A stretch of DNA of 62,995 nt from Azovibrio restrictus (GTDB taxonomy: Bacteria; Bacteroidota; Bacteroidia; Chitinophagales; Chitinophagaceae): positions 1 to 62,995 of the forward strand of contig JANLJF010000049.1 in the NCBI GenBank assembly GCA_029255605.1. The letters run 5' to 3'. Positions within the stretch are counted from its first letter, which is position 1. Every line of letters begins with the position of its first letter. This document shows positions 34,990 through 56,097 of the stretch, one piece after another. Below the pieces are notes generated by a model that did not search any database, was not told the origin of the DNA, and saw nothing but the letters and a program-made list of their open reading frames with translations. The position numbers were made by a program, and so were the translations under genes.

Positions 34990-35036
34990 TTGCGTAGTTC
35001 TACGCGTTGGCAACTCCGCCCGACAATGTTCCTTTG
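34990..35036 (+). promoter_or_regulatory. Palindromic operator plus -7-like box before the T9SS gene
   Basis: TTGCGTAGTTCTACGC (34990-35005) contains a 14-bp perfect palindrome (GCGTAG-TT-CTACGC, centre 34998.5). TTCCTTTG at 35029-35036 resembles the -7 consensus TAnnTTTG (7 of 8). The distance from TGCG to the box is 38 nt, identical to that at 54961-55006. The predicted centre lies near -44 relative to the transcript start, as for an activator. Confidence 0.6.
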
Positions 35037-35068
35037 CATCATATTCTTCAACACAAAAACGATAGCGT

Positions 35069-35569
35069 ATGAGAGCAATAACATTAACACTAAGCCTGCT
35101 GCTGGCCGCAGGTGCACTGCATGCACAGAGCATCGATCGCCGGGTCGTATCCTCCGCAGGCGGATATAGCAGCACCGCTTCGGTATCGGTAAGCAGCACG
35201 GTGGGCGAGGTAGCCATAGCTACCGTTACATCCGGCAGCTTCACCATCACACAGGGTTTTCAGCAGCCCGATGGCCTTTTCCCCAATGATGTAAAAAGTA
35301 CGGCATCCGTTGTGGTGGGTTATGAGTTGTATCCGAATCCGGCACAAAACAGCATCACCCTCAGCCTGAAAACGGATAACAACGCACTGCTGCATTTCTC
35401 CATTTACGATGCTGCTGGCCGCCTCATGCACAGGCAGCGCAATGTAACGGTAGAAAAGCAGTATAAACGCAGCATAGACCTTACGGGGTATAGCAGTGGC
35501 AATTACCTGCTACAAATTACAGATAGTAACGGCACACTGGCAAAAACCATCTCATTTACCAAACAATAA
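35069..35569 (+). CDS. Short T9SS sorting-domain protein
   Basis: 166 residues. A signal peptide (MRAITLTLSLLLAAGALHA) is followed by about 60 residues of Ser/Val-rich sequence and a C-terminal type A sorting domain (about 84-166: YELYPNPAQNSITLSL, FSIYDAAGRLM, YSSGNYLLQI). Such domains direct export through the type IX secretion system and are cleaved or anchored at the surface. The cargo part is only some 60 residues, so it may be a small surface protein or a decoy of the sorting machinery. The palindromic site at 34990 lies upstream. A tail-fibre-like gene follows after 45 bp. Confidence 0.82.
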   Translation: MRAITLTLSLLLAAGALHAQSIDRRVVSSAGGYSSTASVSVSSTVGEVAIATVTSGSFTITQGFQQPDGLFPNDVKSTASVVVGYELYPNPAQNSITLSLKTDNNALLHFSIYDAAGRLMHRQRNVTVEKQYKRSIDLTGYSSGNYLLQITDSNGTLAKTISFTKQ

Positions 35570-35614
35570 CCACAAAAAAACAATTAAACATTCATATTTA
35601 TTAAAACTAAAATT

Positions 35615-36784
35615 ATGAACAAGAAACTGAACATACTGGCGGCAGCGGCACTTAGCTGCATACTTTCTTTCTCCGCATCGGCGCAGGTACCTGCGGGTTT
35701 CAACTACCAGGCGGTAGTGCGCAATTCCGGCGGCACTTTGATAGCTTCTCAGAATGTAGGTGTTAAAATAACGGTGCAGGATGGTGCATCTGCAGCTTTG
35801 TACACAGAAGAACGCACGGTGATGACCACACCACAAGGCCTCCTGAATGTGCAGGTAGGTGATGGTACTGCTACTACAACAACAGGCAACCTTAGCAGTA
35901 TAGACTGGGGAAAAAGCGCTGCGAGCATGAAAGTAGAAATAGACCCTGCAGGTGGCACCAGCTATACAGATATGGGTACTTCTCCTTTTGCAAGCGTTCC
36001 GTATGCAAGGTTTTCCAATGGCCTGCAAGCAACCAGCAATGGTGGCCTGGGTGTAAGGGGTAGTAGTACATCAAACCTGTGGCTGGGCTTTTATGAAGCT
36101 GATGTTTATCGCGGTTATATAGGTAGCTATGCCGGTAAAAATGAAGACATGGACTTTGGTACCGGCGGTGGCAACACCTTGGGTAGCGTACACCTTACCG
36201 TAGCTGCAGTGCCTAAGGTTACAATAGACTCTATTGGTAACGTAGGTGTGGGCACCCGCTTTCCTAAATACAGGTTCCAGGTAGATGGTGTCACAGGTTC
36301 TTTTAATGATAATGGTATTCGTATTCAGAATACTTCGGTAAGCAGCGGATGGAGCTTATACGCATCAGCATCAGGTGCGTTGATAATAGGCCGTAGCGGC
36401 AACCTTGGCCAGTTTGACGGAGTATCGGGTGTTTATACTTCTTTGTCCGACCGCAGGGCTAAAACCAATATACAGGATGTAACGCCGGTATTGAGCAAGG
36501 TGATGACACTGGCGCCTAAAACATATCAATACAAAGTGCAGGGCAACCAGGAGTCAAAACAATACATCGGTTTCATTGCGCAGGATGTATATGATGTGTT
36601 CCCTCAGTTTGTAAGCGTAAATACTAACAATGATGGTAATGCTATGTTTGAAAACCAGATGGGTGTAGACTATGCCAGTATGAGCACTATCGCTATCAAG
36701 GCCATACAAGAGCAGCAGGCTATTATCGAGCAGTTAAAGGCACGCATCACAGCGCTGGAACAACAAGTAGCTAACCAGAAGTAG
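35615..36784 (+). CDS. Secreted tail-fibre/Peptidase_S74-domain protein
   Basis: 389 residues with a signal peptide (MNKKLNILAAAALSCILSFSASA). The N-terminal portion is beta-rich and repetitive. Residues about 277-360 are an intramolecular chaperone domain (SDRRAKTNIQDV, YIGFIAQDVYDVFPQFV), typical of phage tail spikes and of Bacteroidota surface proteins; the catalytic Ser/Lys dyad of S74 autoproteases is plausible at S278 and K283 but not proven. A coiled coil (AIQEQQAIIEQLKARITALEQQ) ends the protein, so it is probably trimeric. It lies directly after the T9SS gene and may be its partner (inference). Confidence 0.75.
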   Translation: MNKKLNILAAAALSCILSFSASAQVPAGFNYQAVVRNSGGTLIASQNVGVKITVQDGASAALYTEERTVMTTPQGLLNVQVGDGTATTTTGNLSSIDWGKSAASMKVEIDPAGGTSYTDMGTSPFASVPYARFSNGLQATSNGGLGVRGSSTSNLWLGFYEADVYRGYIGSYAGKNEDMDFGTGGGNTLGSVHLTVAAVPKVTIDSIGNVGVGTRFPKYRFQVDGVTGSFNDNGIRIQNTSVSSGWSLYASASGALIIGRSGNLGQFDGVSGVYTSLSDRRAKTNIQDVTPVLSKVMTLAPKTYQYKVQGNQESKQYIGFIAQDVYDVFPQFVSVNTNNDGNAMFENQMGVDYASMSTIAIKAIQEQQAIIEQLKARITALEQQVANQK

Positions 36785-54811: not shown

Positions 54812-54822
54812 GTATGGTAAGG

Positions 54823-54909
54823 CGGAGAGAAAGGGATTCGAACCCTTGATACCTTTGACAGTATACACACTTTCCAGGCGTGCCTCTTCAACCACTCGAG
54901 CACCTCTCC
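54823..54909 (-). tRNA. tRNA-Ser (anticodon GGA)
   Basis: 87-nt tRNA with acceptor GGAGAGG/TCTCTCC (last pair G-T), T-arm GGGTTCGAATCCC, anticodon loop CTGGAAA reading GGA (UCC/UCU Ser codons), and the long variable arm of serine tRNAs. Discriminator G; CCA is not encoded. Confidence 0.95.
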
Positions 54910-54959
54910 GTGAATGCGGGCGGCAAAAATAGGGATTTTTTCTAATCATATGGTGTGCA

Positions 54960-55006
54960 TTGCGTAGTTCTACGCATATATTTCCATCTGCAGCATCGTA
55001 CATTTA
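54960..55006 (+). promoter_or_regulatory. Palindromic operator plus -7-like box before the DUF2235 gene
   Basis: TTGCGTAGTTCTACGC (54960-54975), extended to a 16-bp palindrome TGCGTAG-TT-CTACGCA centred at 54968.5. TACATTTA at 54999-55006 is the -7-like box, 38 nt from the TGCG start, exactly as at 34991-35036. Confidence 0.6.
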
Positions 55007-55050: not shown

Positions 55051-56097
55051 ATGAAGAGGATAATAACATGTAGTGATGGTACCTGGAACCGGCCTAACAT
55101 AGATGAGAAGACCAATGTGCAGAAGATGTTCGACTTTATAAAAAGGCGCGATGCCAATGGCATAGAGCAGGTGAAAATATATGATGAAGGCATCGGGTCG
55201 AGCGGAAATGCGCTGGTACGCATGTTTAACGGCGCGACGGGAAAGGGTATCGATGAAAACATCCGTGATATTTACAAGTTTATTTGCTGGAATTACGAAG
55301 CGGGGGATGACCTGTTCCTGTTTGGTTTTAGCAGGGGCGCCTACACTGCACGCAGCCTTGCGGGGCTGATACGCAAGTGTGGTATCATCAGGCATAATGA
55401 TATAGACCTGGTGGCAAAGGCATACGAACTGTACCGTAATAAGAGTGTGCTATCGGGTGATGAAAAAGCGGTGCAATTCAGGAAAGAAAATAGCTATGAA
55501 GCGGCCACCATCAAGCTGATAGGCGTATGGGATACGGTGGGTAGCCTGGGCATACCGCTGCATTTCCTGCAGTGGTATAACAAACGTCGCTACACCTTTT
55601 ACGATACCAGGCTGAGCAGTATTATAGAACATGCCTACCATGCCCTGGCGGTGGATGAGCGCAGGAAGACCTTTGTGCCTACGCTATGGGAAAGAAGTGC
55701 GGAAGAACCCAAAGGGTTTAAACAGGTATTGGAGCAGCGCTGGTTTCCGGGCGTACATTCCAATGTTGGTGGTGGCTACCCGGATACGGGGCTGAGCGAT
55801 ATAGCACTAAAGTGGCTATTCAGAAAGGCAGCAGCAGTAGGGCTTGAAATGGATCAGCGCATACATGAGCTACCTGATAAGTATGATGCAACGATCTATG
55901 ATTCTACCAAAGGGTTATTCTCTTTATTGCCTAAGGCTACACGCAAAATAGTGGTAGATAATGTAGAATCTTTTATAGATGAGTCTGTGTACAGGCGTAT
56001 GGAAATAATGGGCGATAAATACCGCCCGGCGAATGTGTTGAATGCAGAAATAAAAAGACTGGCTAATAAGGAAATAGCTGAGCCGCAGTTGCTGTAG
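55051..56097 (+). CDS. DUF2235 (Tle1-like) alpha/beta hydrolase
   Basis: 348 residues, no signal peptide. The nucleophile elbow GFSRG is at 92-96 (S94), the catalytic Asp at D161 (GVWDTVG) and His at H236 (PGVHSNVGGG): the alpha/beta-hydrolase triad of DUF2235, whose best-known members are phospholipase effectors of type VI secretion. No VgrG, PAAR or adaptor gene is nearby, so an effector role is not supported here; a housekeeping lipase is as likely. The palindrome at 54960 lies 75 bp upstream of the ATG. A 35-bp overlap with the convergent tatD. Confidence 0.85.
   Translation: MKRIITCSDGTWNRPNIDEKTNVQKMFDFIKRRDANGIEQVKIYDEGIGSSGNALVRMFNGATGKGIDENIRDIYKFICWNYEAGDDLFLFGFSRGAYTARSLAGLIRKCGIIRHNDIDLVAKAYELYRNKSVLSGDEKAVQFRKENSYEAATIKLIGVWDTVGSLGIPLHFLQWYNKRRYTFYDTRLSSIIEHAYHALAVDERRKTFVPTLWERSAEEPKGFKQVLEQRWFPGVHSNVGGGYPDTGLSDIALKWLFRKAAAVGLEMDQRIHELPDKYDATIYDSTKGLFSLLPKATRKIVVDNVESFIDESVYRRMEIMGDKYRPANVLNAEIKRLANKEIAEPQLL

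What the first reader, a model, noticed from the sequence alone, without database searches (positions are those of the whole stretch)
34990..35036. Identical palindrome at identical distance from a -7 box: first site
TTGCGTAGTTCTACGC occurs 79 bp upstream of the T9SS sorting-domain gene and again 20 kb away at 54960. In both places the palindrome GCGTAG-TT-CTACGC starts 38 nt before a TAnnTTTG-like box. Two exact 16-mers with the same spacing are very unlikely by chance; this looks like the site of an activator centred near -44. The regulator is not in the window. It may define a small regulon of surface or envelope genes.
Basis: partly seen in the sequence, partly recalled or inferred. Interest (0 to 1): 0.85.

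Follow-up and report, generated by a model that had tools for sequence, protein, structure and literature searches.

The report
Operator of an undescribed two-component system
The repeated palindrome is very probably a switch site in front of genes, bound by an uncharacterised signal-responding regulator that also controls its own operon and several secreted-protein genes; I located that regulator elsewhere in the same genome.

Summary
Observation confirmed: GCGTAG-TT-CTACGC lies at 34992-35005 and 54962-54975, each 37 nt upstream of a TAnnTTTG-like -7 box. A shared 16-mer alone would not be remarkable in 63 kb, but wider data make it real. The genome has only three perfect copies, all intergenic with the same TT spacer. 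Across 50 unrelated Bacteroidota promoters carrying the site, 14 have the -7 box at offset 36-39 (2.3 expected by shuffling; 0 of 2000 shuffles reach 14). That operon's own promoter has the palindrome, with a perfect TATTTTTG at offset 37. The site is conserved before this operon across the family, and before a paralogous operon in other genus members. The three genus genomes lacking both operons have no intergenic site. Other targets are small T9SS-secreted proteins with S74/fibre-like partners and a Tle1-like hydrolase. Binding, activation and signal are untested. New member of a known kind: NarL-type autoregulated operator with a small envelope/secretion regulon.

The parts
34992..35005 (+). 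Site 1: operator palindrome GCGTAG-TT-CTACGC, dyad centre about -42.5
   Evidence: conserved in G011
35007..35009 (+). possible -33 TTG, 19 nt before the -7 box (site 1 only; site 2 has TAT here)
   Evidence: sequence; weak
35029..35036 (+). -7-like box TTCCTTTG (5 of 6 to TAnnTTTG), offset 37; predicted transcript start about 35041
   Evidence: kept in G011 while its flanks vary
35069..35569 (+). 166-aa secreted protein with C-terminal T9SS sorting domain (Por_Secre_tail, 6e-14)
35615..36784 (+). 389-aa secreted fibre-like protein with S74 chaperone domain (Peptidase_S74, 1.2e-16), probably same operon; a paralogous pair follows the C128 site
54962..54975 (+). Site 2: operator palindrome GCGTAG-TT-CTACGC
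   Evidence: conserved in G011
54999..55006 (+). -7-like box TACATTTA (5 of 6), offset 37; predicted transcript start about 55011
55051..56097 (+). 348-aa T6SS Tle1-like hydrolase (PF09994, 4e-85), presumed target of site 2
54821..54909 (-). tRNA-Ser(gga), divergent neighbour of site 2
54924..54931 (-). perfect TATTTTTG box reading towards tRNA-Ser, offset 44 from site 2 on the minus strand: alternative or additional target

Best explanation
Both palindromes are operators of a NarL/LuxR-type two-component response regulator. A regulator dimer sits on the 7-2-7 dyad (T)GCGTAG-TT-CTACGC(A), centred at about -42.5, and recruits the Bacteroidota sigma-A RNA polymerase to the TAnnTTTG box 37 nt downstream (class II-type activation, with little or no -33 element). 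Shown here: the site, its spacing, its intergenic placement, its conserved presence before the operon for the regulator, and its co-occurrence with that operon. Inferred: binding, phosphorylation dependence, and activation rather than repression. The likely cognate regulator in this genome is the 223-aa regulator at G000:C48:22386-23054. It is the last gene of the operon lipoprotein (171 aa) - membrane protein (214 aa) - HisKA_3 kinase (249 aa) - regulator, which is itself preceded by ACGTAGAAATACGC with TATTTTTG at offset 37 (autoregulation). The other own-genome sites precede: the window's T9SS/S74 pair; a paralogous T9SS/fibre-like pair (C128); a third T9SS-domain protein (C124); the window's Tle1-like hydrolase; a TPR-kinase plus second NarL-type regulator operon (C116); and an AraC-type gene (C38).
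For: Genome and genus census. Spacing test on 50 unrelated promoters, window and G011 sites excluded: 14 with a box at 36-39, shuffle mean 2.3, 0/2000. Own operon with perfect box at 37. Family search with the operon's membrane protein: 106/296 genomes have it, and the six closest orthologues all carry RCGTAGTTCTACGY, against 33/296 overall; overall association p = 5e-4. Promoters of 29 such operons: motif score >=10/12 in 16 (0.5 expected), best motif 60-85 nt before the start codon in 22, box at 36-38 in 13 of 22. Genus: the operon or its paralogue is preceded by RCGTAKWWMTACGY in G000, G011, G005 and in G002, G003, G004, G006, G008, G009, G012, G013; in G001 the regulator's contig is cut off, but the same lipoprotein gene carries the site. 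G007, G010 and G014, which have neither operon, have no intergenic site: 3 (all inside genes), 0 and 0. The same gene class (T9SS small protein, NYQG fibre-like protein) is preceded by the site in G005, at different loci. The regulator has Response_reg + GerE and the kinase HisKA_3 + HATPase; nearest solved relatives are VraR and NarL. NarL itself binds 7-2-7 inverted repeats and activates from -44.5 (PMC7419079).
Against: Only 3 of 7 own-genome sites have a box of 5/6 or better at 36-39 (C48, both window sites). C124 has its perfect box at 82, and C116, C38 and C128 have poor ones. Some sites lie between genes without an obvious downstream start (G005:C54). Family- and phylum-wide, the number of RCGTAGTTCTACGY sites is close to chance; it is placement and spacing, not count, that stand out. 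Nine GerE-domain proteins exist in this genome, so another one, for example C116, could bind the same site. No binding or expression data.
Confidence: 0.8

Rival explanations
1. The site is an operator of NarL-type regulators, but of a different or of several paralogous ones (for example the C116 TPR-kinase/regulator pair), not specifically of the C48 system.
For: C116 regulator operon is itself preceded by ACGTAGAAATACGT. Paralogous regulators with HTH 'RTVEGIR' have the same site before their operon. Nine GerE proteins in the genome.
Against: The six closest orthologues of the C48 operon all come from genomes with the exact site, and site number is highest in genomes with the 'EGYR' regulator: 7, 7 and 5. 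The C116 promoter lacks a good box at 37.
Confidence: 0.2
2. Repressor operator: the dimer blocks the polymerase instead of recruiting it.
For: Autoregulation is compatible with repression; the dyad lies next to the -33 position. ErdR, a regulator of the same family, was reported as mostly repressing (PMC9927353).
Against: A fixed 37-nt distance to the -7 box over many unrelated promoters and absence of a conserved -33 TTG are what activator-dependent promoters show; repressor sites scatter.
Confidence: 0.13
3. At site 2 the palindrome serves the divergent tRNA-Ser gene, not the Tle1-like gene.
For: Perfect TATTTTTG towards the tRNA at offset 44.
Against: Offset 44 is off the preferred 36-39; the box towards the hydrolase is at exactly 37.
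Confidence: 0.1
4. The palindrome is an RNA or DNA structural element (terminator, attenuator, mobile-element end, REP) and not a protein-binding operator.
For: GC-rich dyad able to form a 5-bp stem with GTTC loop; some copies lie downstream of genes.
Against: It lies upstream of the -7 box and so outside the transcript, has no U-run, no conserved flanks beyond near-identical species, and tracks the presence of one regulator operon.
Confidence: 0.04
5. Coincidence: two chance copies of a short palindrome.
For: Repeated 16-mers do occur in a 63-kb window.
Against: All genome, genus and spacing tests above.
Confidence: 0.01

Closest known systems
Escherichia coli NarL/NarX regulon (7-2-7 sites; ogt, yeaR promoters)
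   Same: NarL-family regulator with receiver and GerE domains, inverted repeat with 2-bp spacer, activation from a site abutting the core promoter (-44.5; also -67.5 and -77.5; PMC7419079)
   Different: Different half-site sequence, Bacteroidota sigma-A promoter, no nitrate sensor; kinase has no recognised sensing domain and is encoded with a lipoprotein and a membrane protein of no Pfam family
VraR/LiaR-type cell-envelope regulators
   Same: Closest solved structure by sequence (VraR 5hev, 4gvp; E about 1e-30); an autoregulated operon with lipoprotein and membrane partners resembles vra/lia logic (from general knowledge)
   Different: Gram-positive; different DNA motif; membrane partner has no Pfam match; envelope-stress role not tested
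CrbR/ErdR and its ACTU motif (Pseudomonas)
   Same: LuxR-type regulator with a short imperfect inverted repeat before acs/actP promoters (PMC5715377)
   Different: Different motif (TACTACCATCGTCGAAT-like), different kinase (SLC5/STAC), acetate genes
PorXY-SigP control of T9SS in Porphyromonas gingivalis
   Same: Two-component control connected with T9SS
   Different: PorXY acts on secretion-machine genes via SigP (PMC4800418). Here the regulator has a GerE DNA-binding domain and the targets are T9SS cargo proteins

Membership tests
NarL/FixJ (LuxR-type) response regulator with operator | Regulator with receiver plus GerE HTH domain | tested here: met
   Response_reg 5e-29, GerE 4e-15
NarL/FixJ (LuxR-type) response regulator with operator | HisKA_3-type kinase encoded next to it | tested here: met
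   HisKA_3 5e-10 and HATPase_c 1e-10 in the preceding gene
NarL/FixJ (LuxR-type) response regulator with operator | Inverted-repeat operator, two heptamers with 2-bp spacer | tested here: met
   (T)GCGTAG-TT-CTACGC(A); conserved arms in 22 operon promoters
NarL/FixJ (LuxR-type) response regulator with operator | Direct binding by the phosphorylated regulator | not testable with these tools
   needs EMSA or footprint
Class II-type activator promoter | Site at fixed distance just upstream of the core promoter | tested here: met
   offset 36-39 peak:
Class II-type activator promoter | Transcription depends on the site and the regulator | not testable with these tools
   no expression data
PorXY-SigP system | PorX-type effector architecture (CheY-like receiver without GerE; from general knowledge) | tested here: not met
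   candidate regulator has receiver plus GerE
CrbR/ErdR ACTU operator | ACTU motif before acetate genes | tested here: not met
   motif and targets differ

The most novel reading that the evidence does not exclude
A family-wide, so far undescribed Chitinophagaceae signalling module (lipoprotein + multi-pass membrane protein + sensor-less HisKA_3 kinase + 'RTVEG' NarL-type regulator) senses something at the envelope through the first two proteins. It switches on a small secreted-effector regulon: T9SS cargo with S74 fibre partners, a papain-like lipoprotein and a Tle1-like hydrolase, perhaps for contact or competition.
Probability: 0.3. Interest if true: 0.7.

Novelty: new member of a known kind. 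Interest (0 to 1): 0.57.

Why it matters
Few operators are known for two-component systems in the Bacteroidota outside the gut polysaccharide regulators (general knowledge). I found no paper in the searched library that reports this site in Bacteroidota. Here sequence alone yields an operator, its promoter geometry, its probable regulator, autoregulation conserved across a family, and a short target list that includes T9SS cargo. It also gives exact predictions (transcript starts near 35041 and 55011) that one experiment can test, and suggests that class II-type geometry applies to the unusual TAnnTTTG promoters.

Tried and rejected
Phylum-wide enrichment by count: rejected, because counts of RCGTAGTTCTACGY are near chance over 395 genomes. 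The claim that equal 16-mers are by themselves improbable: rejected. An exact conserved site before orthologues of the T9SS gene in the rest of the genus: not found, only GGTAGTTTTAC-like elements. A fixed orientation of the TT spacer relative to the gene: not general, since the C48 operon has the AA form. CrbR/ErdR as the same system: rejected on motif. Literature searches for the motif gave only unrelated matches.

Full report
Observation. The window holds GCGTAGTTCTACGC at 34992-35005 and 54962-54975, with TTCCTTTG and TACATTTA starting exactly 37 nt after its first base. Site 1 is 77 nt before the start codon of a 166-aa T9SS-tail protein, and site 2 is 89 nt before a 348-aa Tle1-like hydrolase. 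Among 35 perfect 6-2-6 palindromes in the window this is the only one that recurs; a repeated 16-mer as such is not rare.

Own genome. The window is G000:C49 of a 3.27-Mb assembly. GCGTAGNNCTACGC occurs three times without mismatch: the two window copies and C124:17480. All three have the TT spacer, and all are intergenic before a gene. The wider form RCGTAKWWMTACGY occurs seven times, all intergenic: C38, C48, C49 twice, C116, C124 and C128.

Genus and family. In 15 genomes of the genus, 10 of 10 GCGTAGNNCTACGC sites (7 distinct loci) have the TT/AA spacer and lie between genes; the Poisson chance of 7 or more given 0.4 expected is 2e-7. In the family and phylum the count of RCGTAGTTCTACGY is near chance, but 47 of 57 distinct examined sites are intergenic by a crude gene call.

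Spacing. From 53 non-redundant downstream stretches leading to a gene start I scored TAnnTTTG (at least 5 of 6). Leaving out the window and its near-identical species, 14 of 50 have a box at offset 36-39, against 2.3 in shuffles (0 of 2000 reach it) and 2.6 in other windows of the same width. Weaker secondary peaks lie near 60 and 84, about 23 bp apart. NarL at ogt activates from -44.5 and -67.5, also 23 bp apart (PMC7419079); this parallel is only suggestive. With the box at -12 to -5 (PMC9723704) the dyad centre is at -42.5.

Regulator. Requiring the loose dyad and a perfect box at the right distance leaves one site in the genome: C48:20418. It lies 64 nt before a four-gene operon: lipoprotein 171 aa, membrane protein 214 aa, HisKA_3 kinase 249 aa, NarL-type regulator 223 aa. 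The same operon in another genus (G319) has GCGTAGAACTACGT with TATCTTTG at 37. Searching the family with the membrane protein found it in 106 of 296 genomes. The genomes of the six best orthologues all carry RCGTAGTTCTACGY, which only 33 of 296 genomes have, and the overall association has p = 5e-4. In 29 operon promoters the motif scores at least 10/12 in 16 (0.5 expected). The best motif is 60-85 nt before the start in 22, and 13 of those 22 have the box at 36-38 (shuffle mean 0.7, largest of 5000 shuffles 5).

Presence and absence in the genus. G000, G011 and G005 have this regulator (at least 73% identical) and 7, 7 and 5 sites. Most other members have a paralogous operon (regulator HTH 'RTVEGIR', 43-46% identical) preceded by GCGTAGAAATACGC or close variants. 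G007, G010 and G014 have neither operon; G010 and G014 have no site, and the three in G007 are inside genes.

Targets. In this genome: the window's T9SS-tail protein with its S74 partner; a paralogous T9SS-tail protein with a 654-aa fibre-like partner (C128); a third T9SS-tail protein (C124); the Tle1-like hydrolase; the regulator operon itself; a TPR-kinase/regulator operon (C116); and an AraC-type gene (C38). In G005 the site again precedes a T9SS-tail/fibre pair, another fibre-like gene and a 401-aa secreted protein, at loci that are not the same. In G011 the C38-type site also faces a papain-like lipoprotein gene, whose relative lies next to the regulator operon in G319.

Reading. The best account is a NarL-type, autoregulated operator acting from about -42.5. 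Shown: site, spacing, placement, conservation before the regulator operon, co-occurrence. Inferred: binding, phosphorylation dependence, direction of control, signal. The promoter geometry is that of known class II activators and the dyad that of NarL 7-2-7 sites. By family the regulator is an ordinary NarL/FixJ member. The operon's lipoprotein and membrane protein have no Pfam family, and I found no published description of the motif in Bacteroidota in the library searched.

Limits. Four of seven own-genome sites lack a good box at 36-39; exact conservation of the window sites reaches only the nearest species; other NarL-type regulators could share the site; gene calls on loci are crude ORF calls.

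Noticed in passing
L017, L057, L065, L067, L073: The same 14-mer occurs intergenically in Proteobacteria next to cstA-like genes, Cache-type kinases and a NarL-type regulator followed by a dctA-like gene: possibly an independent NarL-type system with the same operator.
   Followed up: partly
54911-54975: Site 2 lies between divergent tRNA-Ser (perfect TATTTTTG at offset 44 on the minus strand) and the Tle1-like gene; either or both could be controlled.
   Followed up: partly
L262-L266, L270, L272: Orthologues of the window's T9SS gene in genus members without the exact site mostly have a conserved GGTAGTTTTAC element about 65 nt before the start, perhaps a drifted version of the operator.
   Followed up: partly
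window 35069-36784; L224; L349: Small T9SS-tail protein plus NYQ(A/G)-type fibre-like protein recurs as a two-gene pair, several per genome in the genus.
   Followed up: no
L227:3100-3200: Upstream of the G017 regulator operon there is an additional outward-facing repeat CTAAACTACGCAATTTGCATGCGTAGTTTAG made of the same half-sites.
   Followed up: no
L044: A Bacteroidia genome has several tandem copies of the dyad (TACGTAGTTCTACGTA and variants) about 20-30 nt apart in one intergenic region.
   Followed up: no
G011 = contigs CABHOP010000020.1/096.1 (L062, L029): The nearest relative of the window's genome is deposited as 'uncultured Bacteroides sp.' although it groups here with the Chitinophagaceae-like genus: probably a mislabelled MAG.
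   Followed up: no
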